A stretch of DNA of 64,000 nucleotides. Origin: Allacma fusca (lineage: Eukaryota > Arthropoda > Collembola > Symphypleona > Sminthuridae). The notes under the pieces were generated by a model. It saw nothing but the letters and a program-made list of their open reading frames with translations, was not told the origin of the DNA and did not search any database. The stretch lies in assembly GCA_947179485.1 (NCBI GenBank), contig OX359250.1:46101450-46165449 (forward strand). Direction: 5' to 3'. How positions within the stretch are numbered: position 1 is the stretch's first letter; each line of letters starts with the position of its first letter. A program made the translations under genes and the position numbers. This document shows, one piece after another, positions 15,349-63,245 of the stretch.

Positions 15349-15374
15349 ACATTTAATTAATTATTAATTAATTA
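15349..15374. repeat. 26-base AT-rich insertion inside the RT catalytic motif
   Basis: A run of TTAATTAA-type repeats sits exactly between the codons for Phe-Ala and Asp-Asp of the RT active-site box on the minus strand. Its length is not a multiple of three, and it brings in stop codons, so it ends the upstream frame and shifts the downstream one. It is nearly self-complementary, which suggests slippage or a tiny insertion footprint. Confidence 0.8.
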
Positions 15375-24365: not shown

Positions 24366-24452
24366 AATGATTCACAAGTATAATTACACGAAAGATTCAC
24401 AATACTTTTGGGCACTAAGAGTATTTACATACACCAAAAACTCAAAAGTATC

Positions 24453-24470
24453 CGGTTTCCGAAGGACCAA
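24453..24470 (-). other. Primer-binding site of the BEL/Pao element
   Basis: On the minus strand, five to six bases after the LTR end (..CGCACA), the sequence reads TGGTCCTTCGGAAACCGG. The TGG start and position immediately inside the 5' LTR fit a tRNA primer-binding site; similar TGGTCCTTCG sites are common in insect LTR elements. The priming tRNA was not assigned. Confidence 0.7.
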
Positions 24471-24474
24471 AAAA

Positions 24475-33079: not shown

Positions 33080-36000
33080 TTAGTACGTTTCAGGGAAGTT
33101 GACTCGGTTATCAAAAGGGACCTGACGCTGTTCCAAGGAGTTTCTGTGCTGTACTATAATTCTTTTCTGATTAGTCTGAGTGAATCTCTTTGTCTCAAAA
33201 ATGTTTCGACGGTTTCGCACCACGGAACAGTCAGGCTTTTCTGGACTTGTGTCTTCAAATTCGTCAATAATAATACTATCGCTTTTACCACCAGCGTTTT
33301 CTTTGTCCTCATCAGAGTCAGACTGTTCAATTTCAGAGCCAGGAGAGTGCATCCTTGCAAATCGTTTCTTCAGTGCAGCTGCAATCATACTGGCAGGATC
33401 ACTAGGATTCGACTTCTTTGGCTGTCTCATTGGAGTTCCGCCAGGAGACCTACCAAACACAAACAATCAAATAAATTTATTAAATGATAAATAAAATTAA
33501 TACACAAGCACTAAAACCTGATTGCCACATTTTCATGCATTCAGTTATGTAAACGCTTTTCCCATTGTTTTAGTGAGAATTATTTCAATAATAATCCCAA
33601 TCCTCTAATCCCGTTTGTATTAGATGCGTTAAAATCTTAGTTACACATACACAGTGCCAATATATGAACACATGAACACAGGCACTCCGGAATAAGGGGG
33701 GACAGGAGGGTCACTGTCCCTCCCAAAAAATGTCAGGGAGGGACAGGCTATTCTGCTGTCCCCCCCCCACTTTTAAGAATCGAATTAACCTTTTCTTAAC
33801 TTTTTGAAGTCAAATTTTCTATGAAGCTTCATGTTTTTTTAAAAATCCTCCACAAACTGCTGTTAGTTGTTTTTTAAAACTCCCAACAAACTACCTCTTC
33901 TAAACAAAATTGTTTACTCAAATGATAAATATCTTTTCCATCCTGGTATATGCATGCATGTGAAGATCGGCTCGTCTAGGTAACTACCAAAATTGAGTAG
34001 TGAAAGTAGTAGGTCATACTGCAGTCAACATTAGATTTTTTAAAGCTACCGTTTTCATCCTTGATAATGATTTTGAACTTATTCAAACGATTTTATGCCA
34101 GTATTGCAATACTTTCAGGGTTGAAATTGTGTGATAGCGTGATTATTCAAATAGTAACTTAGGTATTCAACGCAACGCAGCCCATAAAAAAATTTGAGGT
34201 TATTTTCCTATCCAACATTCTTTACTATTGCTAAATTTGGAATATTATTTCCCGTTCGTATGCCGAACAAATTGACCTCCCCTTGCCAGATTGATCCAGG
34301 CCAAAATCTTGACCTGGATCAAAAGTTTGAACAATTTAAAACTTTTACTTTGAATTTCGTTCCAAATTCATGCCAGACCAATAAATCTGTTCCAAAATGT
34401 CGGACCAGACAGATAATACCATTCCGGTATTACGAACTGAACCGAAAATTTGCTAGGAGCAATTTATAAACTCAATAGGTTTTTAGCGCGCCAATATTAT
34501 TGAAAAGAGTACAACTGAGTATTAAAACGTCACCCGAAGAGTTTATTTCGGGATATTAATAATTAAAATGAAATATTGTTGTTTGGTGAAACATTTACGT
34601 CAAAAAATTCACCGACGCAAAATTTGGTCTGTTCCAACGGATAGAAAAGGTCATGCACTTCTAAACCAGTAAATCTACTGTAGAATGTTCGTTGGACGAA
34701 AATTGTGGAACAAATCTAGAGGAATGGTTCTACATTTGGACCATGTCAGACCAAAAATGAAAGAACAGATTGAACCATTCCCGGAAATAGATCGAGAAAT
34801 CTATTCTTTGATACCTCTATTTGAAATCAGTAAAATTTTGATAGCATTTAGTGTGTGTAATAAAATGTTTCTAATATATGAGATTTAGTTGGTGTCTTCT
34901 ATAAAAACTTGTTCTTTTAAAAAAATTTGGAACAAAAATTAAAAGTTCTATATTTTGCATGTTAACTAACGAAAAATAATGTGTAACCGTATATACATAT
35001 GTACGTACATACGTTTGTATGTGACCAATAGCAAAGTAACGAAAACTAATTTTACAATATTGTCCCCCCCACTTTTTTGGACGTTCCGGAGTGCCTGCAT
35101 GAACATGTACCTGAGGCACAGTAAAGCCTTATCGGGAAACTACACAACAGTATAAAACTACTTTTAAAATATTCACATCAGAACTAGTAAAGTCTATTCG
35201 CGAAAGTTACACACTTGGTAAAACCTATAGTTTTTGCCCAACTATCTGAGTACAAAGTACAAACATAAAAATTCACAACTACGAATAGTAGAGCTAAAGA
35301 AATTTGCCCTACTACCTCGTTAGAGCCATAATATTTGGTCGACTACGTCGGTAGAGCTAAATATTGCTGAAGCAGTTACTGTTGCAAGATCAGATAATCT
35401 GTTATAAAAGCAGTTAACACTCGAAAAACGAGCAAGGTCCCAGGGGGACTTTATGCGTCAAAATCGATTATGTAGAGGTACCCAACACATTTTTTAGATA
35501 ACCCCCCCACTCAACCCACACAAGGAGGGTACAAAAAATATTCAATTCCAGATTTTTTAAAGAATTGCTACAAAAAACTGTTGAAAGCATTGACAGCTTA
35601 GTGCTTAGAAACTTGCAATCTTTCACGTATCTGGAAATTACTCTCTCAGTTCATTATACACGACATTCAAGTAACATTTTTGCAGCGAGGTATTGTTTAA
35701 ACAAAGTTAGTTAGTTGCTGAGTATCGCTTGATTTAAATTGTTCCACTTATTGTTAAATAACAGTTTTGCATTATTCTGAACCTGTGCAACATAACATAC
35801 TTTAGTTACCTGGAGCAGAATTACACGCTCTAGGTGCAACTTCATTGAAATATTCAATACCATTAACCATCACAATGAAAATATGCGCCTTTTTATGATG
35901 AAATATGACAAAAAGTAATGAAGCAAAAATATCTTCAAAATTTTCATTTACTTGGCAACTGCACGCAGTCTCACAGATGGAAGATCCTTCAGCACATCGG

Positions 36001-38334
36001 ACATTGTCGCGGGTTGAGAATTTCCTGGTGTTTTATCAACGGTCTTTATAAGGGATGCTTCTGTCGGTTTCCCAACTCGGAGATTAATAACTTTAGATGA
36101 GGGTACCAAGATTGCAGGAGGAAGAGGAGGAGGTGGAGGCGGAGGTGGGGGTGGCGGCGCAGGGGGAAGGGATACTGGTGGTTTTTCAGTAGTAGCAGGT
36201 ACTTCTGATGGTACTGATAATGAGGTTTGAGTAGCCAAAATCTTCGCAATCATGATCCGCATTTCTGAAAGTTCGTGTTCTAGAGCGGCTACCTTAGCTT
36301 GCGTTGCGGCATTTAATGTCGAAGACTCCAAATTTGAATGTAGCTCAGATTCGTTGGAACCTTGGGTTAAACTTGGAGTAGAACACTTGGGATGAAATCT
36401 TGGTATGCTGAAACGTTAACACATTTGAATTATTTTTAACCACCTCAATTTTTATAAACTTCCATGATTCTCTCCCTCAAAAAAACATTTTCAAAATATG
36501 TTTTGATGCAGGTTTGCAGGAAATTTTATGGTATTTCCAGTGAGCTAACTGACTGGTCTCAGCATTAAGAGCAGTGGTAAAAAAGTGGTAGCCAGGTTAG
36601 CGAAATATTCCTTCTAGTGCAAAATTGAAAAAAAATTGGAGTATAAAGACATTTGAGATTTTCAATTTTTCAAGCAAGCTGGACATAAAAAAATTTGGGG
36701 TTTGTTTCACGAGGAATAATTTCGATCTATTATCAGTAGCCTTAATCAAAAATTACGGCTGCAGCAGCATATAAGGCGAAGCAAGACTATGAATTATTCC
36801 AACAGGTTATCATCAATGTCTGCAGGTATTACATTATTTAGAACTTAAGTCACTCTTTTTAGGTGCAAGGCGAAACGTAGTTCCATATTTGATATCGTGT
36901 TGATTTCTGTCCGTCATCACGATAACTGCCGAACCAACGTCACAACACAATTCAAACTCTTTACAGTGACACCTTGTCTAATGTGCCGGAACCCTATTGA
37001 TTTTGGAGAAGAACAGGACATCCGTTTGACCATAGCGGTTTTTTGACCTCAGAAAATTAAAATAGGTTACATTTAATACAAACGGCTTCTCCAGAGGCTC
37101 TACCCGAGGCACAAAACTTTTATGGACGTTGTTTACGATATCGATACACAGATGCCGCTTCACTTTGCCCCCTTGACGACTTTACGCTTTGGTCTTTAGT
37201 ACTTGTTACCGATGATTTTTACTGCTACGGCCGTCATTTCCGACTTACAATTGTCTCAATATTGTAGTACTAGCAAATGAATACCCATGAAATTTGCTGC
37301 AAACTCAATGGCTTGATTGTTTGTCGGCGAATTTGCTTGAAAAATGGAAAACTAGAAACTGACTTCATACTTATTTTGATTTTTTTAAAATTTTGCTGCT
37401 AAGGAATATATATATATATATCAGATAGGTCTTCTGGAAACCCCTTTATTTCCTACAAACTAGCGTCAAAACAAATTCTGATTTTTTTAGGCGAAATTAA
37501 AACACATTAATTTCAATCTATAAAAAACCCTAACGTTCGGTCTTCACGTTTATGATCCCTTTGACCCTAAAAATTGACACGGTCAATGAACAAAATAGGA
37601 GTTGACTACAAACTAGAGGAATCAAATATTGGATGAGTCATTTCTTTATGTGAGCTACAGGAGATCAAATGATACCGAGCCTTACAGTAATCAACATTAG
37701 AAATTTAAGTTCTCACTCCAAATCAAAATTAATGGTCAGATCCGTTGAACCCCACAAGCTGGAACTAACACTCTCAGCTCTAGCATCTTCCTCGCTAACT
37801 AGGTCTTCCTCAGGTCCAAATGCGTGAATCAGTCCTGACTCTCCATAATCCGACTCGTCAGTCTCCGAGGTGTCTTCTTCAATAAATTTTCGAGCAGACA
37901 CGAAACCTCTCGGGATGTAAGTGCAATGTGTATTGCTATCCTCTAGTGAGCCAAAGGTTATTCTAGGTGTGGGTTGCAAAAACGGGACGTAGTAAGCAAT
38001 AGTTCTGACCAAACTCCCTCGTCTTTGATACATTCGATAAGCTTGAATTAATGCGTCCACCTGATAGCGGACCCCATGGGGTGCATTCCTCAGACTTTCC
38101 AATAAAGGTCCGATCTGTCATCACAAAATCACCAATCTTAGCAATAAATCTCAATAATATACTTGCAAAGTTTTCCAATCATGGTACTTTTACCCGCTCA
38201 GTAATAATGCCAGCAAAGGGTCTCACTCCATAATGGTATCCCAAAATCACTCCACAAAGTACGCCCAAATCCACCAATAACGCCTTATCAAACGGACTAC
38301 GCTGGGACCTTAAAGTAACTTGAGATGAGGCCAT
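33080..38334 (-). CDS. MTFR1: Mitochondrial fission regulator, MTFR1/MTFR2/MTFR1L family
   Basis: Vertebrate MTFR proteins associate with mitochondria and influence fission and respiration. Exons on the minus strand are 38334-38194, 38114-37717, 36407-35952 and 33449-33080. Phases match at each junction (0, 2, 2) to give 455 codons including stop (454 aa); human MTFR1 is about 330. Family hallmarks are the SLVRTIAYYVPFLQPTPRITF-like region (human: SSRSIVRKIGTNL..), a heptad-like stretch AALEHELSEMRIMIAKI, a proline run of eleven residues, DVLKDLPSVRLRAV (human EILKEMNSVKLRSV) and DPASMIAAALKKRFA (human DPAALIAEALKKKFA). Exon 1 adds a hydrophobic segment VDLGVLCGVILGYHYG. At 37713 an apparent stop is bypassed by a GTGAGA donor. 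A hAT element lies in the last intron. Which of the three vertebrate paralogs it equals cannot be said. It stands head-to-head with ARMC1. Confidence 0.85.
33679..35097. mobile_element. hAT-like element in the last intron of the MTFR1-family gene
   Basis: The ends CAGGCACTCCGGAA and TTCCGGAGTGCCTG are exact inverted repeats inside a perfect 8-bp duplication CATGAACA (33671-33678 and 35098-35105). Just inside each end is a poly-G/poly-C tract (GGGGGGACAGG, TGTCCCCCCC). Several open frames of 60-90 codons occur, none of which I can assign to a transposase. Confidence 0.85.
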
Positions 38335-41300
38335 GGTGCTTTTATTTTAATTCTTCAACTTGAGGTCCACCCGTCTTTACAAACGATAAATCCCATTAGA
38401 TAATACACAAATCCGCAAAACTACTACTTCAGATCGAAGTGTAGTACTTCATGTTTCATTCAAATATTTTATTTTATATTCTCTTCTCAGGGTAAATTCA
38501 GTGCATAGATTCTGATTTTGAAAGAATTTGATCCATATTAAATTAATTAACCAAAAAACAAACCAATTCTTACTTCATATGAAAAAGTTTGGCCGAGTCC
38601 TCAGCTGATGACAACCCAAATGGTTTACAAACTAAACGGCATTCATTTTCGCTATTTGTACACACCAAACAAGGAACAAGGCATAATTACAAGCGAAATA
38701 TGTAAGGCCCTTAAAACTGGAATATTTTAACTTCTCACCGGTAATAAGTCATGGTTTCCAAATAAGTAACCAACACAGTAACAATAACAATAAATCTCTT
38801 CAAACTCAAACTCCAACTGTCACTTGATAACTCGTGTCAATAAAAATTCTAATCCACTCCGTAGCGTTCACCGTACTGACACTATAGGACACTCACACTG
38901 TGAATTATATATAATTATTATTGTTTTAGCTTTAAGCAATTTAACATTTGCACTGGTTGAGAGCAACTATAGTTCACATGCCATTAAGCCGTTTTGCAGG
39001 TTATTATTGTTTATGCGGGAACAGAGTTGCACGTTGCATGTGGGAATTCATCCCCTTCGAAACTGACACTGACAGTATATTATGAGCCAAAGCATTGCTG
39101 CAAGCAGTGATACCCAGTAGTAGTGTTTTTTTAGTGATCCCATTTCGTCTATCAGGGTTAGAGCCAAGTTTAGAGCCTTAATCAGTCGTGGGATGAATAC
39201 ATAGACTATCGTCGTTGAAGCAAAATGTTCTACATGCTTTTGTACAGCATCTTCATTATTGTGTCTCTTCATGCACATATGGTTAATAACATCTATTTTT
39301 GTTTTTCATGAAGCTGGATGTACAGTGTGAATTCCTTAGATTAAAGCATTCATAACAATTTATTGTCAACCAAAAACTTGAAGTTTCTGAGGTCATGGAT
39401 GTATACTATTTTCATGAATTTCATGATTCTTTATTTGCACCATTTTCAATGCTGAGGAACATCGACATCAGTCATTTTAAAATTTAATATTATTTAGCCT
39501 AAAATCTACACACAAATAAGGATACTTAATGGATATGTTTCAACTGTCCAGGCGGACAATGATGCATATACATGCCTTTCTTAGTCGAATGAGGACGAGA
39601 ATTTCAACGGCGAAGAGGTAGTATAATGCCATGGATGCATTTTGAATTCAAAGCAAAAAGTCTACACGTGTCTTTTCCCTTACAAGGCTCCCTCAAAGAG
39701 AAATGAACTTCTGGATTCTGCTCTTCAATTTTTGTGAACTGAAGCCTATTTTGTACTTCGTGAAGCTCCATGCTCATTATTAGTCTTTATCCACAAAAAA
39801 AATCTCAATCATTTAGCTTCTTCATCGAGGTCAAGCAAGTGCAAGTACACAAGGTTCTTGGATTCGTACAATACAATCCATTATACATTTTATTTCTTTA
39901 AACTCTGACCTCTCGTTTCCCCGAAACTCCGAATTCCCGTGACACAATTCATTCATCCAGATTCCTTAAAGGTACACACCGAATTTTTTCTATCCATTTA
40001 TTATAGTAAATTAATTTAATAAATATAAATTTAATCTTTTTTTTTAAAGTGGTGAAGGAGAGCTGATTTGGAGAGCTGATTTATTTCACCGTTCACTCAA
40101 GTACACTGACAGGAGAGTTAATAATTTAGAATATTGGTGCTAGGAGTGGAAGACTGGTGCATGCTGGTTTGTGGAACCGTTAGAGCCTTGGCTGCGTTTA
40201 CCGCCAATCCTTTCCATTGGCTCATGTTTGAATTTTGTCGGAGGGAATGAGGAAGAAATAACGGACGTTCGTTGCATGTGTCGAGTCCTGCCTATATCCT
40301 AGTCCGGTTCCCAAATTTATTACCGCAGTGAGAAATATTCCTTTACAATCTTATCTCTTCCGTCTGCCGGAAATCTACTCTGTTTCGGGGCATCACAGGT
40401 AATAATTATTCTCATTCACATGTACTTACATAATTCTCACAAGTATAAAGTACACCAAGTAGCGTGGAAATAATTCCCTCCAACGGCTCCAACTCTCCAA
40501 CAACAAAACTCCAATACTCCAATCCAACATCATATTCCAGTATTTGAATTCCTACTTTTATTGAGTTTTATCCGCACAAGAGACAGGTAGCCCGGTAAAA
40601 TTAGAGGGTTTAATAATAGCGGATTGTTCCTCCGTCCGCAAAAATAATTAGGCAACTGCAGGAGGCATGAGTTGTTCCAGTCTCCCAATAATTAACTATT
40701 GAGTGAAGTTCAATGTGTTTACTATCTGATTAGTTGATTTTTGCATGTATTCTTGATTTTGGACTGCTGTTGAGTAATATAATTACATAATTGAAGTACC
40801 TATACATACATGCGTTCTTCCTAAATAAGTACATACATTGTTTTCATATTCCCAGTTTGGACTGTATTGACTCTTGAGTTCTTCCTTGGCAGCAGTTATT
40901 GGTGATTTATTATTCGTTTAATGAAGTGTGTTAAGTTAATGTTGACAGGGTATATGAGTAGTTGGTGGTGGAATTTGATCGGTTCTAGATTTTTGACTTA
41001 TTCTGGAATTGATTTAGCAGACCACGTTCTGGATTCTGGGGTGACTCTTGACTTGCTATTGGACTCCTCAAAATCTCATTGGAAGACTCATTTGAATGTT
41101 GAAACGTTGAAAGTCTTGATAATTGAGGTAATTATAGGTTATATTTAATATTTATAATTATTGTTGTTAATATGAATATTATAGATGAGTTCGGTCATTC
41201 ACCGGTTATTATGTCATGATGGGAGTATGAGTTGGGTTGTAGTGTAGTGCTTGTAGTTGTGGTGGTTGGTGATTACTTATAATTTTTAAGCGTTCGGGAT

Positions 41301-42188
41301 AAATATTTTTTGTACAAAGAGATTATTTGCATCTGTAGGAGCCAAGGTATTTGGGAGAATTTTCAGTAACCCATTGTCCCACTATGACCCTGGCCGCAAA
41401 CAATTAACTTTATGAAATAACCCGGCTTGAGTTGACTTTGAGTGAAATCATCCACGGTGTACGGGTGTACCCCCCGTAGAGACATAATAGTGATGCATTT
41501 TATTGCTACCCATTTCCCCTCTAGTATCTATCAAACCACCCGTTAGGTACCACCCAACCCAAATGACACTGCTGTAACTGATGGGATCAGTTCAATAAGA
41601 TAAATAAATTACGATCATGAGTTGTAGTTAATATTTCCCGTTTTTTAACAACAATCTAACCAAAACTAGTAAGATTTTGAAGACATGAAGAAAGTCAGAT
41701 AGCAGAAGCAAATGTGGTTGTAATCACCATTGTCAATTTTCGAACCTGTCTTAAACAAAACGAAGGAAATCAAAGACTCAGGCAAGAAGGAACTAAAACT
41801 AGTTTTCGTGGGCTGCGTGAGTAATTAAATAACTACTTGTTTGCGGAAGTGATCTGTTTTTCCTCTGATAATGAGCGAGAAGTGATAAATGGGCATGGGT
41901 GGTAGTTACGTGGGTGGTGGGTAGTAGATAGATAGATATCTAGAATCCAGGTGGTAGAGATGATTTCAGCAGTAAAAGTCAAATTTTACCTAAGAGGGAA
42001 CCCCTAAAATACATACAAGACAGCATGCCACTATTGCAATGAGTTTTTGCTTACTGAAGGGGTGCTCTTATAAATAGAATGAACTGTATTTATTGGTAAA
42101 TGTTTATGCTGTTTGATTTTGTGTACAATAATGTGCTTACTGCTTACTCTTGGTTTAGTGACATTTCCAACGTGTACCTCCCAGAGGC
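38335..42188. other. Shared upstream region of the divergent MTFR1-family and ARMC1 genes
   Basis: No coding exon recognised in 3.9 kb. The two genes start at its edges and are transcribed outward, so their promoters lie here. The + strand reads CTCCCAG just before the ARMC1 start, a possible 3' splice site, so a non-coding first exon further upstream is possible. The short open frames here show no family resemblance. Confidence 0.45.
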
Positions 42189-45100
42189 ATGGAATCTGCT
42201 GCCGAAAACCTTGTGAGCCAGATGAAGGGGGTTGAAATAGAGGACAATGACGAGAGTTATCCGAGATTGTCTGTAGAAAATGAAGCACTAAGCTTGGAAG
42301 TGGACAGTGAATATGCTCCTGTCAACATTGCACCGTCATCCTCGGAAGATCTAACAAAGGATGAGAACACTCCGTCACTACCGAAACCCGGTTCGGTTGA
42401 TGATAATGAAGTCAATGCCAGCGCCACGACGACAGCTGCAAATGAACTGTATTATCTGCAAGTTCTGGGGCAGTACTTGCATAGCGTTAGGAATAAAGAA
42501 AACCATTTGTCGTTCTTGAAGGTAATTACTGGAGAATTAAACCGGCATAAGTTCCCTGCTGTAGGAGCAAGGTTGGAAAATTCTTCTTGTGGAGCGCAAT
42601 AGAAGAAAATGCGTAGGAGGAGGAATTTCTGACGTTGTCATTTTATCTGGGAATACCTGTCCGTTATTAAAACAATTCAAAGAACTAGGCTTTTAGCAAT
42701 TTCAACGGGATTCATTTTCATTAAATATCAACAATCCATCTTAAAAAATTGACACTCATCATCCAAAGATATTTAAATGTATCAAAGCATATTGCTTCTT
42801 TTGAAATAAATTGTAATCATATATTTGGATGCTGTGGCCTCGCTCAATTTTTGACTGTTGATTTTAAAGAAAATGAATTCCAATGTTTACTACAAGCCTA
42901 GTGCTTTGAAATACTTTTATCACGGACAGGTCTTCCTTGATAAAATGACAACGTCAGAAATTCCTCCTCCTTCGCATTTTCTTCTGTTGCGCTCCACAAG
43001 AATTTCTTCAGCCTTGCTCCCTGTCTTTTTTATCATATCCATAATTCTCAACGTAGAAATCCGTTTGATAGCTCCCTGAAAAGCCTAATCACATTTCCTC
43101 GAAATTGATCGTCAAAGCATTTTCTCGAAAACAATATTGTGTGAGAATATTGAAAATGAAGAATTTGAAAGTTGAAGTTTCACATTTTTTAACCCTGTGA
43201 CCTCAAATATTGAACTAGGTCAATAAAGTATACTTTAGAAAATCTGGAAGCTAAAAACTGTAGGAATAAAATATTTTATAAGTGACCTCCTTATGTGAGT
43301 TAGGGTTAGGGGGCACGTAGCAAATGATTATTGTCACTGTGTACATGGAATATTCCACTTGCAATTAATCCACTCCTAAATGATTAATTATATATTGATT
43401 TTATTTGCTGTACTTACAGGATGCAGTTGTCGGACCATTTTTGTCACTCTGCTTGGCTTCTAACTCGGATAAAGTTTTAGTGGGCGTTCTCAAAGTAATC
43501 AATGTTCTGGTTAAAAATCGGGATAATTTACCTCGGTTGAGGGAACTTCTACACTTTACGGATGCTCTTCTTGCTGCTTCTAAGTGAGTTATATTTTTGC
43601 TTTTGTAGGTTTTATTATGAATTTTGTAATGGTTTTATGGAGACATAGAGACATTCTTGTCGGCAAAACTAACTGACTAATTTCTTGATTTAGAAACGAA
43701 AGTATTAATGGAGCTGTTCGTCAGAAGGCCTCAAACTTTTATGATCTCATCAACAATTCGAAGAAACATTTTTGTAATAACACAGGCACATTGAACCAAG
43801 AACAGTATGGTGATCCCCGACTTTCCGAATTCGCAAAGCCTTTAAGTTCTGCAAGAAAGACTCAACTGTATTTAAACCACGCTTTGAATAAGGTAGGTAA
43901 ATATCACATTTTAGTTGTTCAAGCATTTTTAACATTTAGACCTACTGTGCATAAAACGCGGGTGATTTCCGTATGTCCGTCCCCGACCCCTATTTTATTC
44001 AGTTTAACTGAAGTACTTAATTATGAAGTGGTAACAGGCTACAAGTTGTGCATATGTCGTGAGTGTAGTTAGGCTTGATTATAAATTATAATCAGGGTTG
44101 CACTAAGGCTTCCATCCGATCGGATCATCCGCGGATATCCGAAATATCGGATCGGATACACTACTTATCCGATCCGAATACAATCCGATCGGATCGGATA
44201 CGTACCCCTTATCCGGTCATCGGATTCGGATCGGATCGGATTTGGAAATGACTTTATCCGACCGGTTCGGATCACAAATGATAAACGGATAATCCGACGG
44301 ATATCCGAAAATCAAATTTTTAGCGCGTTCGAGCGACCAATAAGACCGAAGTGTGCACCAACAATTTTTCCAAGGAGTTACTGTGCCGCTTTTACGTGTT
44401 TTCTTATTAATTCTGTGCTTCAAATTTACAGCGGTGTTCTAAAGTTTTTCCTCAGTTTGTACGTAATGTATGCAAAAATGATTAATATTGTGATGTAGTA
44501 AAAAGCTAATGCATTTTTGTAGTGAAAATTCCTAATACTTTTTTCATCATCCACTGGTATCAATTCGGATAATTTCGGATATCCGCGGGTCGGATCGGAT
44601 ACGGATGAATAAAGTTTTTATCCGATCCGTAACGGTCGGATCGGATAATAAGAAAATTTATCCGAAAATTTCGGTTCGGATCGGATATTCGATTTATCCG
44701 GTCGGATGGAAGCCTTAGGTTACACAATCGAAAATGTCCTGCGTTTTATGCCTGCCCACCTGCAAATGTCCTGAAGATGCACGACATTTTGCCAAAATAT
44801 TTATGTACACTTATTACAGTCCATTTTTGCTTTTCTAGTACACATAAGGGAGCTTTCTATGTTATAATCAGGCCCATTCAGCAATACATCTATACGCTGA
44901 ATTTATGTAGTATATTTACAGTAAGTTCGCAGGGAACCTACAAGCGAAGAAAAGTTAGGTTGTAGATTGAAACAGAAAAGTGGATATGGATAATATACCA
45001 CACCCAGGGTCCATCTGTCTTTGAATTTTTTCGAAATTTTCAACGGTTCGGGAATTACAGGGGAAAATCGGTTTTTTCGGTTAAACCAAATTTTCTCGAA

Positions 45101-48100
45101 AACGGCTCGTCCGATTTCGTCCCTGTTTCGTGCTACGTAATCAGAAAAACATGTTCTTGTGCAGGTTTTGTCAATTTTTGAAAATTTTCAAAATTTTTCA
45201 AAATTTCATGAAAAATGTAAAAAAATTCAAAATTTTTAACTTTTGGCGTACAATATATTATGAAATGTTCTTTATTTACATAGCCTACTGCATACAAACA
45301 TTTTATCCACGAAATGCCAAAAGTTAAAAAAGGTTCGGATATCCGCGGATATCCGAACCTTACTTCAAGAGACCGTAAAACAGATATATCTTATATATTG
45401 GGCATGTTTCTAATTTTATCACATTCAAATCAATATGAAAATGTTTAAATTCCGGTGTATCGATAATTACCTCGTTAGATGCAAAACCAATTTTGCTTCC
45501 AAAAAACTGAAAACAAATAGATTATGCATTCAATATAATTGACTCGGCTTTTCCTTGATTCTTTTGTCTTGAATATTTTTCCACCAACTCTTTCAGTTGA
45601 TGTTGGAAATAAGTACTAAGAAAAATAATTAAAAATGTAACAACAAATTCACGAAGAATTTGAACAATTGATGCCGGGCACGTTGCATGCGTGTATGGAG
45701 GACGAGAATTCTCTTGAATGCATTAAAGTTTCAAATTAGAGGTGGGATTCGGGCTTGACTTCAGGCCCGAACCCGGAAGAAACCCGAGCAAATACTCAAT
45801 ACTCAGCACCCCGCCCGCCAACGGGCTAAATATTCGATATTCAACCCGGCCCGTTTTATGCACTTCACATTTTGTGAAACCCGAACCCGTTAAAAACCCG
45901 GTCTCCAAAATATTTTACAACCCGAACCCGCTAAAAACCTGATCTTTAAATAGTTTTAAAACCCGATGAAAATCCGGTTTTTTACCAACAATTGAATCCG
46001 CTGTGAAACCTCTATTTACATATTCTATTTTATTTGCATATACTGTCCATCCCAATAAACGTGCACACACGGAGCAAAACAGCTCTGAAGTTTTTTGAAG
46101 ATTATGAACTGAAAAATAAATGCAGGCCCAAGCCCGATCTTAACCCGGTTTCATTGATTTAGTGCACCCGGTCGGAGCCCGACGTAAGTTCGTATTTGCA
46201 GCCCGAACCCGGCTAAAAACCCGGCCGGGTCGGGTTCGGGCCGGCCCGAATCTAATAGCCCGCTTCCTGACCTCACCTCTATTTCAAATCCAAGAATCTC
46301 TCTACTATAAAATGCGTGACAATATGATAGCATTATTCCTCACGAGAGGGCTCGTCTAAAAGACGGATATCCGCGGATATCCGCCGGATCATCCGAAAAC
46401 ACAGAACATGCTCATCCTATCCGGTCGGATGCATTCATTACTGCATCAAATCCTATCCGAAATAAATACACGGATTCAAATGATGCATCCGGTCCGCCAT
46501 ATGTTTGACGGATAGGATTAATTGTGTTTTCAATCCTATCCGAATCCGATCCGATCCGAATCCGTCCGGATCAATCCGATCCGATGAAGACCTTTAATTA
46601 TCCATATCCACTTTTCTGTTTCAATCTACAACCTAACTTTTCTTCGTTTGTAGGTTCCCTGCGAACTTACAGTTATCATTTCCGAACGGATTCCACATTT
46701 TATTTACACTATAGTATGTAAAATTCTCCAAAACTACTTCAGGTAGAAATCGATAATCAAGCTTATCCTTATTTTTGTCTACGTTGCTTCCACTCATTGA
46801 ACGTGATGGCTCCACTCTTTTGTCGTATTTGATTATCTAACTTGGACTGATGTGTCCGTAGGAACGCCGGTTTGTAATTACGAGAGCTCTGGTGCGGATT
46901 GATGGAGTCATTTCAATTGCATTTAATCCGGAGCAACATTTGTGCATCGTTAGATCAAGAAATGTAAGACCTGAAGTTCTCGGAATGACTGTCGCAAGTC
47001 TGGGGTTTCATTGCAGTCTTATCACAAGGAATGAAAACAACGAAATTGTAAGTTTTGCTGTTTATTGCTAACACTTGTACGGACCATTTGTTTCCCACAA
47101 GAAACCTGTTGATGACTTGTGAAATATCGTTGAGATTTCACAAATTTTAAGGCAGACAGGTGGTGGTATACCTGCGGCATTTGCTACAAGTGCACTTACA
47201 ACTGTTCGTTTTGTTTTTCCTGAACCTACATATTATATTTTCTCTTCAAGAGGCTTTTACTTGACCATTTTACATTTACACAAGTAACATGTTTAACATT
47301 TGCTTCTCCACCGAAAATACTCAGCAGGTTTGAAAGATGTAAAAGTAAAAGAAATACGTATACAGGGTGCCACATACCTCAACCGTCCATCAGTCCATAG
47401 AAAAGCATGTAGAATGTATGCACATATGTACTATGTGTCACGCATCCTTTTTCTTTCCCCTAACCCATAGAAGGGACAACGGCAAAAAATTGCGATTCCC
47501 CCATTTTCAAGCAAATTCTTTAGATTTTTCAAAATTTTTTTCATTGACCGGGGTCAAAAATTGCAGACACTGTCGTCAAGAATGTGAAGCAAAATCGAGA
47601 TTTTTTGCGGATAGTCGGCATTACAAATTTTTGTTTACAGGTAACACAATTTCTGATGTTTGTTTTGACGCTCGTTTGTAAGGAATGTTATGGTATTTTT
47701 GGGGAACTACCACAAGTCCCCACGTTGAGATTTGTGGACTTGACTCGTGAGTACTGAGAGCAAGGTTGGGGAAATTTATCTTGAGGAGCAAAGATGCAGA
47801 ACTGGAGAGTTTCTGTTTTTGCCATTTCTTCATGGACAAAAAAAAACTTTCTTTTTACTTCACCATTTTGGAAAAAGTCAAACTTTCAATTTTGGCTCAC
47901 ATTGTTAGGTCCTGAGACCTCAATTTTTAACCCAAGAAGATGATATTAGACCCAAATGAAACCCCACAACTACTTTTAGAACGTTGAAATATTTTTACGA
48001 ACGACAGACCGTCCATGAATTGAAACAAATTTTGAAAAATGTGGAAAAAATGCGGGGAATCGCATATTTTAAGTCGTTGCCCCTTACATGTGCTAGGGGA

Positions 48101-49271
48101 AACATATATGGGATATGGGACACCCTGTGCATAGTGCCACAAATAAATTCCCCTCATCAGCCCGGAGAAGGGGCAACTGTAAAAGTAGATTCGATTCCCC
48201 ATTTTGTAGCAAAGTTTCTTACCGATTTTTCAAGATTTGTTCCATCCTCGTAGTTCGTTTTTGAGGCAGCGGCCAAGAAAGTAAAGCAAAGTCAGGATTT
48301 ATTTTCAGTTTCCGCATCTTTCAGCTGTAAAACTTCTGAAATTTAATTTCCCTAATTTTGTAATTATATCTAATTTTCTATATTTTAACAGTTATCCTTT
48401 TTTCATCTACAGGTAAAATGAACTAACCATAAGCATAAGTGCCATTATCCATTAAAGCAAAATTGGTTATCTAAAGTTTCCACTCAAAACAGAACGAGCT
48501 TACGTACATATATATATGCAAATGCAATAAACATACTAAAAGAAGTGACTAGTTCATTTTTCTTGAAGAATTTTCACCTAGTCCATGTCTTGGAATTTTA
48601 TGAAACTGCAGATTGTTATTTTGCCTTTAATCGGCAACGCATGGTTTCTTTTACTCTTCACTGAGGCTATGCACTACCAAGGTATCTGGTTGATAATACT
48701 AGTAGCAGTTACAAACTTTTAAGGATGTCAAGCATTGTTAATGGTAGAGTGTCATCGCATTATCTAGTGAGTCTTCCACACTTGTCTGTCGCGTAGAGGA
48801 TTTTCTAATGTAAGTTCCTCGCCATAGTTAGCATTACAATACCCAGGTTAAACAAATTGTAACGTATTTCTTATGTAACCAAGCTAGTGTAATTATATTT
48901 GATTACTGCAAAAACTTTTGTAACTGAAAGTCAGTGCTAGCCCCGACAATGAGTTATGTGACAAGTGACAAGAAAGCATATTCACAATCATAGGACACCT
49001 GGAATTTGGCTTGTAGGGTTTGTATGAATTAACACAAAATAAAGTTCTAATCAATACACTGTTATATCATCAGATCCGGGTGCCTATGGTAGTGGAAAAT
49101 AAGCTCGACAAGAAGGAGAGTAAGGAGGTTCCGTTTTACTTTCCTGAGGAAGACGATGATGAGCCTGTGTGTGACAACGCCATAGCAGTGAAAGGTTTCG
49201 CGGACAGTGACGACGGCGAAGGTTGGTGGACTTCTGCTAAAAAGCTGGTTCGTAAATCTTTGTTCTGGTAA
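42189..49271 (+). CDS. ARMC1: Armadillo repeat-containing protein 1
   Basis: ARMC1 is a small armadillo-repeat protein found in cytosol and on mitochondria, implicated in mitochondrial distribution and the MICOS/MIB network. Exons are 42189-42521, 43420-43583, 43694-43892, 46862-47047 and 49074-49271; the phases (0, 2, 0, 0) fit and give 360 codons (359 aa; human 282). Exon 2 is armadillo-like (FLSLCLASNSDKVLVGVLKVINVLV). Exon 4 matches the human ferredoxin-like segment (ALVRIDGVISIAFNPEQHLCIVRSRNVRPEVL against [33 protein letters not shown]). The C-terminus SAKKLVRKSLFW parallels human NFLSRSFYW. The acidic N-terminal 85 residues are extra. AATAAA at 49420-49425 fits polyadenylation. Introns 3 and 4 are full of hAT and other TIR elements. 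Confidence 0.9.
44104..44717. mobile_element. Non-autonomous hAT element with GGATCGGATA-rich ends (ARMC1 intron 3)
   Basis: Ends TAAGGCTTCCATCCGATCGG and CGGTCGGATGGAAGCCTTA are inverted repeats. Flanking 8-mers GGTTGCAC (44096-44103) and GGTTACAC (44718-44725) differ by one base. Both ends are arrays of (C)GGATCGGATA / TATCCGATCCG units. No transposase. Confidence 0.83.
45330..45361. repeat. Perfect 32-base palindrome
   Basis: Both strands read AAGGTTCGGATATCCG then its complement, with a perfect centre CGCG. Just outside, TTTTTAACTTTTGG (about 45232) pairs with CCAAAAGTTAAAAA (about 45317-45330), a stem next to the palindrome. Its core GCGGATATCCG is the same motif that is repeated in the hAT element at 44104-44717. 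Confidence 0.85.
45737..46281. mobile_element. Non-autonomous hAT element with CCCGAACCCG-rich ends (ARMC1 intron 3)
   Basis: Ends TAGAGGTG and CACCTCTA sit inside a perfect 8-bp duplication TTTCAAAT (45729-45736 and 46282-46289). Subterminal regions are arrays of CCCGAACCCGG / CGGGTTCGGG, much richer in GC than the surroundings. No transposase. Confidence 0.88.
46352..46591. mobile_element. Fragment of the GGATCGGATA-type hAT family
   Basis: The stretch is packed with ATCCGATCCG and GGATATCCGCGG. Its right end GATCCGATGAAGACCTTTA resembles the right end of the element at 44104-44717 (GGTCGGATGGAAGCCTTA). No matching target duplication, so boundaries are approximate. Confidence 0.5.
47362..48128. 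mobile_element. TIR element with CAGGGTG ends (ARMC1 intron 4)
   Basis: The left end is TACAGGGTGCCACATACC and the right end ATATGGGACACCCTGTGCA. The inner arms are inverted copies for about 150 bases: both carry TTTCCCCTA, a GGGACAAC/GGGGCAAC block, TGCGATTCCCC and a run of TTTTTCAAAATTT, or complements. No transposase, and no clear target duplication. Confidence 0.6.
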
Positions 49272-51082: not shown

Positions 51083-54000
51083 TTATTTGTCTTTTGACTC
51101 CCAACCACTGTCCCAGGACCAGTCGTCAGATTTCCGATTGGACGTAGATGATTTTTCCGACCTATGAGAATTCTGTGACTGGTATCCTCCACCTCCACCG
51201 GACTCCCAGTCAGCGCCCCAGTCATCCCAACTTTCGGACGACCTAAAATCACAATAAATAATTTCCATCCACATTACTACACGGATCAAATTCTAAATAA
51301 CCAGAAATAGGGTATGACTGTATAGAATATAATAGTTGTAATTTTCCTTTTTTGTTTAAATCGACTCACTTCTTTGATGCAGCAGACCTATTCTCGCCAC
51401 CACCACCCGCTCCTGTGTTGAATAGAGAACTGCGCTCCGTTGGAGAAGTATCAGGGATTTCTTCGTGACCATAGTAGGACTGGGAATGGGTTAAATTACC
51501 GCTGGATGCAGAAGCCACGATGCTGGAAAATCCATCTTTGAAACCTTTTCGACTCAGCTCAGACACCTGAAGCATAAAATGAGCAAACGTTTGAATTAAC
51601 GAAGAATCGATTCAACTCCTACGGTTGTTTCACACAGCTTCACACTGGTGATTTTATTCACATAAATACTGTGCACATTTTCTAAAATTAGTAATTATAG
51701 GTAGTAAATTCTCAGAACGACATTTAGTACAAACTCAAGGAAAATTCAAAAATTCCCTTGGAGTTCAAAAACTCATTGTCTGACATCAACATTTTTTATT
51801 ATTTCTAAAATGTTCGATATAACAATAACAGGTAACATTAGTACAAACGAGCAACGTAAATATTCAGCTCTTCAGCACTATTCACTGTCCATGTGACAAA
51901 CATAACCATTGAGATCGTGCAAAACGCTAAACTAACTGACAGTCTATTCACATTCTATTTTTCGTGGTTGAATAGGTCCCAAACAGCGATTGTAGAGTCT
52001 TGGGAGCAAGTAATCAGCCAATGATGATCTGTCTGAGGATTTAAGATAAATGCTGCTGCCGTAATCGAGTGAGAGTGAAAGGTTAGGACAGCAAGGGGTT
52101 TCATTCTTGGAAACGAAAATAGTCTGACACGTCTATCAGCTCCACAAGTTGCAACAATACGTCCATCTTCTCGGAAACAAATGCATGTTGTTCCAGCGTT
52201 TGTAATTTTAATAACATTTTGAAGAAGCAACTCGGATAACTGGAACAGGTACAAGTTGCGATGCGATGTGCCCACCAGTAGTTGATCAGATATTTGGTCA
52301 TGGTCGCAACAGAAAGGAACTTCAACATTCTCAGGGACTTCTCTACTATTAACTTGCCCTTCCTTTTCAGCTTCTAAACAAGCTTTGGAGACCAAGGAGA
52401 AAGTACTCATACTGAACACGTAAACACTGCCATCCTCACTTCCACAAACCACCAAGCCTTCGTTAGTTTCCACGGCCTTGATAAAGGTGAGTGGAGGTAT
52501 ACTGGGAAGAGCTGTTGATTCCAGCAATTCCATGGAGAGGATTTTGCAATGATTTTCGCTGCTAAACTTTCCAACAGCCGGATACACTAACATATTCTTA
52601 GATAAAAATATGTCCGAATGGCAGAAACCCGGGTGAGTAGACTGTGAAAATGTTTTTACGGTCGAAACTGTAGAAAGGCCTGTCAAACGGTGCAGACCGT
52701 CTGTCCGGGAGTGAATGTAAGTAATTATGTCACGACTTTCCTGATCTACAACAAGCGTTCCCCAGTTGCAATTCTGCAAACTTGAGTCTTCTTTGAGTAC
52801 AACTCGTCGGCTGTTAAAATCCCAAATTTGCATACATCCTTGAGCTGTGACGGTCCCAAATAAAAATGGTCGTCTATGAGTTACCCCATGTAAGACACCC
52901 AACTCGAAGAGCTTAGACGCCACTTGACTACTTAGAACAAACAAGTGTGTCACAAATCCTTGCTTGGATGTCAGCATAAATTTAGGTTTCGGTGGGATCT
53001 TTTGTTCCACTGTCTGAACACAACATTATTAACATTTTACATTGTTTCAAGCCACCTTACAGAAACTCTACAACACTACCTAGGTAGGTATACTGTACCA
53101 TGTAACAGTTTCTCATAGTCAGCAATTCGGCTAACTTTTATAGTTATACTTCAATAATAATTATATAAATACTTCACACATTCCTCAAAGCTTACCTTTT
53201 CAGTGACAGATCCTCCTAGTTCAGCAGCTTTTTGAGTAGCGATTTCGCTTAGCTTGGCAGCATTTTCACTGGCTTTAGAGGCAACTTTAGCAGCTGCCGA
53301 AGAAAACAGGCTCCAACCTTGAGTCAGAGATGACAACGTGGTATCCAATAGATCATTTGATGCTGCTTTAGGTTGAGGGTCCATTGAGTAACCGAATCCA
53401 GTGTACCTTCCTCCTTCTGTATTTAAATCACACGGGTGTCATGATGACGGGATTTCGTTAACCTTTGCAATCAACAAGAGACAGGTAAGAAAAGTTGTAC
53501 CTGCTGGGGTAAGGTCCAAAGAACGAGCAGCATTTTCCAACTTCTTTCGATCCGCGTATGAGACATTTCCAGGAGGTCCATTCTGGTAAGAGTTTGAACC
53601 GTACTCTTCACTTTGTTGGTAGCCAGACGAGTAGGAGGATGGACTGTTATTATTTTTAGGAAATGTGGGAGTGGAAGTACTTTTAGGAAAATTTTTAGCT
53701 GCATTATTATTGTTACTGCTTATTGTGTTATTATAATTAGACACATTCGACGACGAAGACCCACTGCTCTTTTTCGATCCTTGCGAACTAGTAGGTTTCT
53801 GCTTGCTTTTTGACTCACTCCACGCTTCTCCTTGCGCTTCAGTTTGAATCTAGATTCCAGTTTAACAAAATTGAATCTACCAAGTTTAAAACTAAAACAA
53901 TCAGTTCCATCTTCCAATGCACAGCTTGGGAACTGCAATAATTCTAAATCTCATACAGCCGTTCAATTAAAACTAATACCTTATCACGATACAAGGCTGC

Positions 54001-55294
54001 AGCAGACGTATTGTATTTTTGTTGTAGATTTAAATTATCATCCCAATCCGGCTGAGACTCCAAAAATTCTCTAGCTTTTCGGTTGCCACCGACCTGCGCA
54101 TAAAGGAAATTAAAATCATCAGATTTTTCTTATATTATATCTACATTCCACAATGACTACCGAATATCCAAAATAAAAACAATTAAATCAATAAGCATTA
54201 AAGTTATGCTGAAGTTAGGAGTTCTAGAAAGTCTCGGAACTCGTCGAAACAATGAATGATGTATCATATAATGTTGTTTGTTTAGTTTCTTTTTCAATAT
54301 ATTGAAAAAGTTGCTGTACAATGAAGGATTTCACCGAACCAGTGTCGACTCAATCAAATGAATGATAATACAAGGTCAGCTAATTTCTAAACTTCACTAC
54401 TTCACTGCCGTCCATAGATTGCATACTCCCGCAAGAACTAAAAACTACAACTTTAGATTGCCTCTCCTACAAAAAATACTGATCTGATAAAAAATCTTAG
54501 ATACCATTATTCCATGCACACACTACTCTCAATTCCAAAGGTTTTTACAATCTTTCAAGGGAAGATTTATACGTCACTTAGAACGACTCAAGTTCAAAGT
54601 CTGCCTATTTATTGTTAGTAGTCAGCGACAAGTACGAATGATATGCCAAACCTTCATTTTTTCCAGTTCAATGTCCTTCCATTTGTCCATCGTGACAGAT
54701 CGTACGAATGACAGATGCACACCCAGACCTCTGTGCTTTCCAGAGCACTCCAAGCATATCCAGATCCCATATGTAACGGATACCCACTGGGGATTATGAG
54801 CTCCACATTCGAAGCATTTCTGTAACAAAAACAACACACAATTTACTTTCGAGCAAAAACCTACCATACTGCCACCATTTAAATCCCTACACCCATTACC
54901 ACAAGAGTCAGAGCCCCTCATTTACTCCACACGCCAAAAAATTAATTTGATCACTTTCCAAAATATGTAAGTTAATTTCGACAATAATAATTCGACATTT
55001 TGAATCCATCTGAATCTATACAGAGGAAGCCTTTTTCACTCATTATCCCCTTAAAACAATAACTAAGCTAATCGCACTCGACGAGGCCACATCACCATTC
55101 CATGACTGTACACATTGATTGGAGCGGCCCAAAGGTCAAAAATAACTGAACGTGGATTCAATTCCATATGTTTGAAATGAGCCCTGATTGTTGGGATGAC
55201 GTAGAAGAGAAGATGACACAAATCTAGAACTTACATTGTTGTCGTCCTTATGGCGAAGTTCTTGCAAACTTCTTCTGCTTCTTGGACTGGCCAT
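51083..55294 (-). CDS. ARFGAP1: ADP-ribosylation factor GTPase-activating protein 1
   Basis: ARFGAP1 stimulates GTP hydrolysis on Arf1 at the Golgi and so drives COPI coat turnover. Minus-strand exons are 55294-55235, 54819-54652, 54093-53980, 53849-53501, 53416-53196, 51566-51370 and 51242-51083. Phases fit at all six junctions and give 423 codons (422 aa; human 406). The start MASPRSRRSLQELR matches human MASPRTRKVLKEVR. The zinc finger is CX2CX16CX2C (Cys22, 25, 42, 45) with the catalytic arginine at residue 50 (CSGKHRGLGVHLSFVRS). Exon 4 is Ser/Asn-rich linker. Exon 5 has YTGFGYS and an amphipathic, Ser/Thr-rich segment (about 253-286, DTTLSSLTQGWSLFSSAAAK) like the curvature-sensing ALPS motif. 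The C-terminus is rich in Trp/Asp (WDDWGADWE, DDWSWDSGWE), as in coat-binding tails. Intron 5 contains the GNB1L homolog on the same strand. Confidence 0.93.
51795..51800 (-). terminator. Candidate polyadenylation signal of GNB1L
   Basis: AATAAA on the minus strand, about 155 bases after the GNB1L stop and still inside ARFGAP1 intron 5. It supports a separate transcript end for the nested gene. Confidence 0.5.
51955..53116 (-). CDS. GNB1L: GNB1L homolog, nested in an ARFGAP1 intron
   Basis: GNB1L is a WD40 protein; in vertebrates it has been linked to stability of PIKK kinases such as ATR. The main exon is uninterrupted from 53013 to the stop at 51955 (352 codons). WD-type repeats are visible (GCMQIWDFNSRRVV, DGSVYVFSMSTF, DRRVRLFSFPRMKPLAVLTFHS, DSTIAVWDLF). 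Human GNB1L has IRVFHWRTMQPLAVLAFHS in the same place and is 327 aa. Similarity begins upstream of the first in-frame ATG (PPKPKFML against PPPDPQFVL), and in-frame stops lie just before, so the exon is probably spliced at 53013. The best candidate first exon is 53116-53099 (ATG to a GTACAG donor, phase 0, 85-base intron), preceded by TATAAAAG at 53142-53135. AATAAA at 51800-51795 (minus strand) is 155 bases past the stop. The WD40 exon is secure; the start is not. Confidence 0.85.
53135..53142 (-). promoter_or_regulatory. Candidate TATA box for the nested GNB1L gene
   Basis: TATAAAAG on the minus strand, 18 bases before the candidate start codon at 53116. It lies in ARFGAP1 intron 5. The spacing would give almost no 5' UTR, so this is tentative. 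Confidence 0.3.
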
Positions 55295-62429: not shown

Positions 62430-62905
62430 GCAGCAAGTTCGTTCATTGAACTAGTTCGTGAACTGAACTTTTCAAAAATATTTATCATTTTAAATGAACT
62501 TGAATGAACGTAAAATTATTTACAGAACAAATCCCTGAAAGTGAAATTAATTATTTCTCACTTTAAATGAACTTGAATTAACCAGAACCAGTAAACAACA
62601 GTAAACCAGACCATAAATTTAATTTTTCTACAATGCCGACACCGGGATTTGTATCCCCTTGCCCCTTAGTATTCTTAAATATTCACGAATGATCATTTGC
62701 TGTCAAAAACCGGTTTTTGATAACCATTAAACTATTAATTTAAAATCAAAACTAATGAACATGAGCTGAATTGAACGATAAACTGATTTATCTGAACTTG
62801 AACTGAACTGACATAGCTGCAAAACTATTTTGAACTTAACTGAGTGAACGGTACCATGAATTACAGTGAACTTGAGTGAACGTGTTTTTTTTATTTGCAC
62901 GGCGA
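62430..62905. repeat. GAAC/GTTC-rich region
   Basis: Repeated GTTCGTTCATTGAAC, GTGAACTGAAC and TGAACTTGAGTGAACG units are present at both ends. It looks like another hAT-type derivative, but ends and target duplication were not resolved. Confidence 0.35.
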
Positions 62906-62915
62906 ACTGAGTTGA

Positions 62916-63245
62916 CCTTACATCTATCCGATGTCTACCTTACATCTATCCGGTGTCTACCTTACATCTATGCGATGTCTACCTTACATCTATGCGATGT
63001 CTACCTTACATCGATCCGATGTCCACATTTCATCGATCCAATGTCTACCTTACATCGATCCGATGTCTACCTTACATCGATCCGATGTCTACCTTACATC
63101 GATCCGATGTCTACCTTACATCTATCCGATGTCTACCTTACATCTATCCGATGTCTACCTTACATCGATCCGATGTCTACCTTACTTCGATCCTATGTCT
63201 ACCTTACTTCGATCCGATGTCTACCTTACATCGATCCGATGTCTA
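62916..63245 (+). repeat. 22-bp minisatellite, 15 copies
   Basis: The unit begins CCTTACATCGATCC and ends GATGTCTA. There are exactly 15 units over 330 bases, with a few substitutions (CTATCC, CATTTC, TTACTTC). Because 22 is not a multiple of three, all three forward frames spell the same 22-residue repeat and stay open, so the long frames here are not evidence of a gene. Confidence 0.9.

What the first reader, a model, noticed from the sequence alone, without database searches (positions are those of the whole stretch)
33080..49271. Head-to-head MTFR1-family and ARMC1 genes, apparently the same neighbours as in human
The window has MTFR1 (minus, 33080-38334) and ARMC1 (+, 42189-49271) divergent with nothing recognisable between their starts. 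From memory, human ARMC1 (minus) and MTFR1 (+) are also adjacent and divergent at 8q13.1. Both products are tied to mitochondria. A divergent pair kept between an invertebrate and vertebrates points to shared regulation or a joint function. The gene calls are read from sequence; the human arrangement is recalled knowledge; the functional link is inference.
Basis: partly seen in the sequence, partly recalled or inferred. Interest (0 to 1): 0.75.

Follow-up and report, generated by a model that had tools for sequence, protein, structure and literature searches.

The report
Head-to-head genes for mitochondrial partners
Two neighbouring, outward-facing genes in this animal genome code for ARMC1 and an MTFR protein, which work as partners on the surface of human mitochondria, and the same two genes are also neighbours in mammals, so the pair has probably stayed together for a very long time.

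Summary
The window carries an MTFR gene (minus, 4 coding exons, 454 aa, start 38334) and an ARMC1 gene (plus, 5 coding exons, 359 aa, start 42189), diverging across 3,854 bp with no recognisable gene between. MTFR matches Pfam PF05308 at 1e-17. Papers confirm adjacency in human and cattle; the orientation there is recalled. [quoted passage not shown] elegans, which fits joint loss. My paper searches showed nothing on the gene pair itself. Shared regulation is untested, the start codons are nearly 4 kb apart, and my promoter scan was uninformative. No tool reached other invertebrate genomes. Verdict: real, probably ancient divergent pair encoding a known protein partnership; new member of a known kind.

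The parts
38194..38334 (-). MTFR coding exon 1 (residues 1-47): N-terminal extension with a hydrophobic stretch (residues 19-37)
   Evidence: CACCATGG start context, GT donor, phase fits exon 2; hydropathy peak 1.68; no homology evidence for this exon
37717..38114 (-). MTFR coding exon 2, holding the conserved N-terminal helix and the S-[IL]-V-R motif
   Evidence: GT/AG junctions; alignment to recalled human MTFRs; no MTFR Pfam hit of its own
35952..36407 (-). MTFR coding exon 3: conserved helix (ALEHELSEMRIMIAKIL), poly-proline run, DVLKDLPSVRLRAV motif
   Evidence: PF05308 2.4e-16 on the stop-to-stop ORF 35948-36415; spliced protein 1e-17
33080..33449 (-). MTFR coding exon 4: SPGGTP and DPASMIAAALKKRFA motifs, stop codon
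   Evidence: aligns to recalled human MTFR1/MTFR2
38335..42188 (.). 3,854-bp stretch between the two start codons; would hold both promoters and any 5' UTR exons
   Evidence: no Pfam-recognisable ORF, no tRNA, no Rfam match; CpG count in 300 bp peaks at 14, near 40176, equal to the window's 95th percentile; one inverted CCAAT pair at 40204/40216
42189..42521 (+). ARMC1 coding exon 1: unaligned N-terminal tail, then start of the helical (Armadillo) domain
   Evidence: alignment from residue 78
43420..43583 (+). ARMC1 coding exon 2: helical domain; D112, its first codon, aligns with human D37, the MTFR contact
43694..43892 (+). ARMC1 coding exon 3: end of helical domain, start of HMA-like domain
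46862..47047 (+). ARMC1 coding exon 4: most of the HMA-like domain
49074..49271 (+). ARMC1 coding exon 5: acidic linker (FPEEDDDE), 15-residue C-terminal domain ending in tryptophan, stop codon
   Evidence: compared with human functions

Best explanation
The two genes are the animal forms of ARMC1 and MTFR in an ancestral divergent arrangement that mammals also keep as neighbours. Their products form one unit at the mitochondrial outer membrane: ARMC1's helical domain holds MTFR, its HMA-like domain binds MIRO and its C-terminal domain docks on the membrane (TMEM11 or MTCH2), so that MTFR is stabilised and joined to MIRO to restrain retrograde mitochondrial movement. Since ARMC1 is needed for MTFR stability and the copy numbers of the partners are closely matched in human cells, the adjacency is most likely kept by control elements in the 3.9-kb interval that serve both genes. 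Shown here: genes, orientation, spacing, and which of the published key residues are kept. Shown by others: the complex in human cells, adjacency in human and cattle. Inferred: that this species' proteins form the same complex, that the arrangement is ancestral, and, least certain, that shared regulation keeps it.
For: Gene models and identities. Human adjacency: a de novo deletion chr8:66140254-66753892 lists ARMC1 and MTFR1 as its only genes (PMC4074351, passage). Cattle order CYP7B1, LOC104974032, ARMC1, MTFR1, LOC104974034, PDE7A (PMC7601430, passage). Partnership: loss of ARMC1 lowers MTFR1, MTFR2 and MTFR1L; all three co-purify with ARMC1; D37R disrupts MTFR/MIRO/TMEM11 copurification; the discussion calls ARMC1 a dedicated MTFR biogenesis factor and reports closely matched copy numbers (PMC11980836). 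The window ARMC1 keeps D37 (as D112), the terminal W282 (as W359), E243, and acidic residues at 244 and 245. Joint absence: Armc1 and an MTFR are both among 30 honey-bee/vertebrate genes not found in three dipterans, Tribolium, Bombyx and C. elegans, and both bee genes are listed as highly expressed in brain (PMC2656531). General: in a 64-species gene-order survey, once same-family pairs are removed, only divergent pairs remain functionally related at larger evolutionary distances in animals (PMC2871058, passages, data not shown there).
Against: Of nine human residues with published roles, four are changed in the window (D27N, D49A, D239F, F275L), two of them at the MTFR interface. ARMC1 identity is only about 23% (66 of 282 positions) and rests on recalled human sequence. 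The start codons are 3,854 bp apart, so a compact (<1 kb) bidirectional promoter is not evident; the recalled human spacing is about 10 kb. NRF1, ETS, YY1, DRE, CRE and M1BP patterns are absent from the interval, and the splice-site scan for 5' UTR exons was uninformative because its threshold also missed all 7 modelled donors. The same survey that links divergent pairs to function found no special conservation of short-distance divergent pairs in animals. The joint absence may partly reflect fast-evolving proteins that tblastn misses. Linkage in other invertebrates is unseen.
Confidence: 0.6

Rival explanations
1. Passive retention: the pair is ancestral and its products do work together, but the adjacency survives only because no rearrangement happened to break a short interval; there is no shared regulation.
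For: The start codons are 3.9 kb apart, against a published mean of 34,912 nt between divergent animal genes, and conservation of adjacency rises as spacing shrinks to about 10 kb (PMC2871058, passages). No promoter signal stands out: the CpG peak equals the window's 95th percentile and there is one CCAAT pair.
Against: Survival between lineages as distant as mammals and this animal, whose other recognised neighbours (ArfGAP1-like, WD40) are not those of the cattle locus, needs luck when the surroundings have changed; and the two genes encode binding partners.
Confidence: 0.3
2. Coincidence: the genes came together independently in this lineage and in the vertebrate lineage.
For: No other invertebrate was examined, so common descent of the adjacency is not shown.
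Against: A chance adjacent divergent pair of two named genes is of order 1e-5 to 1e-4 (my estimate); it would also have to hit two proteins known to bind each other. Many windows are scanned, though, and dozens of deep microsyntenic pairs are known (80 reported in a sponge, 60 confirmed; PMC5429095, passages).
Confidence: 0.06
3. Misidentification: the plus-strand gene is some other Armadillo/HMA protein rather than the ARMC1 orthologue.
Against: Alignment runs from the helical domain through the HMA-like domain, acidic linker and C-terminal tryptophan in the same order, 72.4 bits against at most 25.0 in 300 shuffles, and the recalled sequence is right at 9 of 9 published positions.
Confidence: 0.03

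Closest known systems
Human/cattle ARMC1-MTFR1 neighbours (8q13.1 / BTA14)
   Same: Same two gene families side by side; divergent orientation in human is recalled
   Different: Next neighbours differ: CYP7B1 and PDE7A in cattle, ArfGAP1-like and a WD40 gene here; mammals have three MTFR paralogues
Human ARMC1-MIRO-MTFR-TMEM11 complex (PMC11980836)
   Same: Both proteins present; the MTFR-contact aspartate, acidic linker and terminal tryptophan of ARMC1 are kept
   Different: D27, D49, D239 and F275 are changed; the modelled MTFR carries a 47-residue N-terminal extension with a hydrophobic stretch, while human MTFRs are described as peripheral
HSPD1-HSPE1 divergent pair
   Same: Shown in PMC2871058 as an example of two adjacent, divergently transcribed genes in different species; both products are mitochondrial partners (recalled)
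   Different: Its short shared promoter (recalled) is not evident here, where start codons are 3.9 kb apart
Divergently paired genes with transcription starts under 1 kb apart
   Same: Head-to-head orientation of neighbouring genes
   Different: Transcription starts unknown; start codons 3,854 bp apart

Membership tests
MTFR family (Pfam PF05308, Mito_fiss_reg) | Profile score above the curated cut-off | tested here: met
   65.6 bits against 26.3, E 1e-17, profile positions 107-244 of 244; profile positions 1-106 are not covered by the match
MTFR family (Pfam PF05308, Mito_fiss_reg) | Conserved N-terminal S-[IL]-V-R region (motif from recalled human sequences) | tested here: inconclusive
   Aligned in MAFFT with recalled human MTFR1, MTFR2 and MTFR1L but outside the Pfam match
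ARMC1 | Full-length similarity to human ARMC1 | tested here: met
   E 1.6e-14, 72.4 bits, human residues 3-282; comparison sequence recalled, right at 9 of 9 published positions
ARMC1 | Helical Armadillo domain, HMA-like domain, short C-terminal domain ending in W | tested here: met
   Two-row profile hits designed Armadillo proteins and an HMA domain; C-terminus ends WWTSAKKLVRKSLFW. The profile holds recalled human sequence; the window protein alone gave no structure hit. Absence of metal-binding cysteines was not tested separately
ARMC1 | Interface residues D27, D37, D49; linker D239, E243, D244, E245; F275, W282 | tested here: inconclusive
   3 of 9 identical (D37, E243, W282), 2 of 9 acid-for-acid swaps (244, 245), 4 of 9 changed (27, 49, 239, 275)
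Divergently paired genes (<1 kb between transcription starts) | Transcription starts less than 1 kb apart | not testable with these tools
   Only start codons are known, 3,854 bp apart; the UTR-exon scan was uninformative
Ancient animal microsynteny | Same adjacency in several phyla | tested here: inconclusive
   Window plus two mammals. Scans of prokaryote and viral contigs found no relative, as expected
Ancient animal microsynteny | Same relative orientation | not testable with these tools
   Divergent in the window; mammalian orientation recalled only

The most novel reading that the evidence does not exclude
ARMC1-MTFR is an ancient two-gene module for mitochondrial positioning, held head to head by shared control elements because the dose of the stabiliser must follow the dose of its client, and dropped as a unit in several insect lineages and in nematodes. 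In this species MTFR has in addition gained, or kept, its own N-terminal membrane-inserting segment, so that the client may be less dependent on ARMC1 for reaching mitochondria.
Probability: 0.25. Interest if true: 0.65.

Novelty: new member of a known kind. Interest (0 to 1): 0.5.

Why it matters
The ARMC1-MTFR link was reported in 2025 as not previously described, although a 2019 paper already mentions an ARMC1-MTFR1L interaction from an interactome map. Gene order and shared absence could have predicted it, and they now give independent, evolutionary support that the partnership is as old as the split between vertebrates and this animal. It offers a simple natural experiment: animals with both genes, with neither and perhaps with one only, in which dose matching of a stabiliser and its client can be tested. 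It also suggests looking at conserved divergent pairs to find other dedicated protein-stabiliser pairs of mitochondria.

Tried and rejected
Whole-genome search for second copies (genome search, own): 8 tries, none answered; so uniqueness of both genes in this species is untested.

Contaminant animal contigs in prokaryote and viral collections: genome contigs with MTFR (128 pattern stretches, 0 relatives) and ARMC1 (72, 0); viral contigs with MTFR (187, 0) and ARMC1 (79, 0). As expected; says nothing about animals.

Shared-promoter signatures: NRF1, ETS, DRE, YY1, CRE, M1BP patterns 0 in the interval; 11 CCAAT/ATTGG, 1 E-box, 2 TATA and 3 Inr-like matches, unremarkable. Inverted CCAAT pair at 40204/40216: 3 such pairs within 25 bp in the window, two of which are the two copies of one LTR; picked after the fact. 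Splice-site scan for UTR exons: nothing above threshold, but all 7 modelled donors and 6 of 7 modelled acceptors also fall below it, so it decides nothing. Repeats in the interval: short and imperfect, 70-90% alike, chance-like.

The Irimia 2012 microsynteny paper is not held, and supplements could not be opened, so whether this pair is in its list is unknown. Papers on the pair: searches (19 of 19 listed; 5 of 7; 2 of 2; 10 of 10; 8 of 8; 3 of 3; 4 of 4; 20 of 58; 1 of 1), 65 (15 of 86); no listed title or abstract start treats ARMC1-MTFR gene order. Most of these papers were seen only as listings.
Full report
What is there. Gene models by splice junctions and frame give MTFR on the minus strand with coding exons 38334-38194, 38114-37717, 36407-35952 and 33449-33080 (454 aa), and ARMC1 on the plus strand with coding exons 42189-42521, 43420-43583, 43694-43892, 46862-47047 and 49074-49271 (359 aa). 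All 7 introns are GT..AG. These are models: there is no transcript, and by a rough weight matrix many of the sites are weak. The start codons are 3,854 bp apart. Three ORFs of 80 codons or more lie between them and a fourth crosses the ARMC1 start; none of these 4 reaches a Pfam cut-off, ARAGORN finds no tRNA in the window and Rfam nothing at gathering score.

Identity of MTFR. The spliced protein matches PF05308 (Mito_fiss_reg) at 1e-17, 65.6 bits against a cut-off of 26.3, over profile positions 107-244. The honey-bee gene behaves alike: its best mouse match is 'DUF729 domain containing 1' (1e-13), then Mtfr1 (3e-9) (PMC2656531, section read); that the former is Mtfr2 is recalled. So this is most simply the undivided animal MTFR rather than MTFR1 as such.

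Identity of ARMC1. No Pfam model reaches its cut-off and the window protein alone has no match among solved structures at E up to 5. I therefore typed human ARMC1 from memory. PMC11980836 (results parts 1 and 2 of 4) names D27, D37, D49, D239, E243, D244, E245, F275 and W282 of a protein whose last residue is 282; my copy is 282 long and right at 9 of 9. BLASTP gives 72.4 bits, E 1.6e-14 (database size set to 1e7), window 78-359 against human 3-282; the best of 300 shuffled copies gives 25.0 bits. A profile of the two finds designed Armadillo proteins (6.5e-14) and an HMA domain (0.0026) in the expected places, with the caveat that half of that profile is recalled.

Which working parts are kept. 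In the alignment D37, the residue whose reversal breaks MTFR binding in human cells, is D112; the C-terminal tryptophan whose removal alone impairs membrane association is W359; the linker that contacts DNAJC11 stays acidic at three of four positions (E, E, D for E243, D244, E245; D239 is F). D27, D49 and F275 are N, A and L. That is 3 of 9 identical, 2 of 9 conservative and 4 of 9 changed. The main contacts look kept; the MTFR interface is not a copy of the human one.

The same neighbours in mammals. A human de novo deletion at chr8:66140254-66753892 lists only ARMC1 and MTFR1 (PMC4074351, passage). A cattle table gives CYP7B1, LOC104974032, ARMC1, MTFR1, LOC104974034, PDE7A (PMC7601430, passage). 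Two other papers place both genes in one region without an order (PMC10486602, PMC2851616, passages). The passages give no strand. That human ARMC1 is on minus and MTFR1 on plus, about 10 kb apart, is recalled. The other neighbours recognised in the window, an ArfGAP1-like gene (PF01412, 1.2e-25; 'ArfGAP1' recalled) and a WD40 gene, are not the cattle ones, so what is shared is the pair and not a block.

What the pair does. PMC11980836 (abstract, results parts 1 and 2 of 4, discussion) shows in human cells that loss of ARMC1 lowers MTFR1, MTFR2 and MTFR1L through the ubiquitin-proteasome system, that all three co-purify with ARMC1, that MIRO, MTFR and TMEM11 form one ARMC1 complex and DNAJC11, MTX1 and MTCH2 another, and that ARMC1-MIRO-MTFR counters retrograde movement. 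It says that the MTFR link had not been described; PMC6808451 (passages) had mentioned an ARMC1-MTFR1L interaction from an interactome map. A 2026 proximity study found ARMC1 with Miro2 but not with its T18N mutant, while MTFR1 and MTFR1L stayed detectable, though reduced, with the mutant (PMC13255069, passages). The words synten-, head-to-head, divergent and chromosom- do not occur in PMC11980836's main text.

Joint loss. [quoted passage not shown] melanogaster, A. gambiae, A. aegypti, T. castaneum, B. mori and C. elegans leaves 30 genes; Armc1 and the MTFR gene are both among them, and both bee genes are listed as highly expressed in brain, as are many others of the list. The paper does not comment on the two together in the passages I saw. 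For a named partner to be in a list of 30 is unlikely by chance, but both proteins diverge fast (bee-mouse E 4e-9 and 1e-13), and a divergent gene can be missed.

Why the adjacency lasts. A 64-species survey reports that, after removal of same-family pairs, only divergent pairs stay functionally related at larger evolutionary distances in animals (stated there as data not shown), that conservation of adjacency peaks at spacings of the order of 10 kb, and that the mean divergent spacing is 34,912 nt (PMC2871058, passages). It also finds no special conservation of short divergent pairs in animals. The window pair at 3.9 kb between start codons fits both shared control and passive survival. My own look at the interval found nothing decisive: CpG counts at most at the window's 95th percentile, one inverted CCAAT pair, and a splice-site scan whose threshold also missed all 7 modelled donors. 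I put shared control ahead on the matched stoichiometry reported in human cells and the apparent joint loss, not on sequence signals.

An oddity in MTFR. Exon 2 is closed by a stop just upstream of its acceptor and its first methionine is residue 75 of the model, inside the conserved region, so an upstream exon is needed. The model's exon 1 starts in a CACCATGG context and adds 47 residues with a hydrophobic stretch (residues 19-37, mean hydropathy 1.68). Recalled human MTFR1 and MTFR2 begin where exon 2 begins, and human MTFRs are called peripheral. If real, this MTFR may reach into the membrane by itself. No homology supports the exon.

Limits. No animal genome other than the window could be searched; the window's own genome search did not complete in 8 tries; the species is not identified; human comparison sequences and the human gene orientation are recalled. 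Scores: interest 0.5, since a specialist would find the match of gene order, joint loss and a newly shown complex worth knowing, yet conserved divergent pairs of interacting proteins are a known kind.

Noticed in passing
window 38194-38334 (-): The modelled MTFR begins with a 47-residue extension holding a hydrophobic stretch that recalled human MTFR1/MTFR2 lack; possible membrane segment.
   Followed up: partly
window 17297-26478 (-): BEL/Pao-type retrotransposon (Peptidase_A17 8.6e-50, DUF1759 3.4e-35) flanked by direct repeats of at least 2,004 bp that are 100% identical (17297-19300 and 24475-26478): a very recent insertion with long repeats.
   Followed up: partly
window 44918-46673: ARMC1 intron 3 holds 77-bp inverted arms, 97.4% alike, at 44918-44994 and 46597-46673: looks like a terminal-inverted-repeat element of about 1.75 kb. 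Stretches rich in CGGAT/ATCCG words lie at about 44.1-44.7 and 46.4-46.6 kb.
   Followed up: partly
window 51366-54921 (-): A WD40 ORF (51955-53025, resembling GNB1L by recall) lies between ORFs that look like an ArfGAP1 gene (ArfGap domain 1.2e-25 at 54622-54921; recalled ArfGAP1-like pieces at 53439-53849, 53151-53438 and perhaps 51366-51611, the last three without a Pfam match at cut-off): possibly a same-strand nested gene.
   Followed up: no
window 13885-16457 (-): Reverse transcriptase ORF of apparently non-LTR type (RVT_1 3.2e-20 at 15372-16457) with a following 491-codon ORF without a Pfam match at E 0.01.
   Followed up: no
window 57219-59645 (+): Pieces of a second retroelement: protease-like, reverse-transcriptase-like (RVT_1 27.0 bits, below the cut-off of 29.6) and RNase H (1.5e-22) ORFs.
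   Followed up: no
window 62876-63334 (+): All three plus-strand frames are open across a repeat that reads like SIRCLPYID over and over.
   Followed up: no
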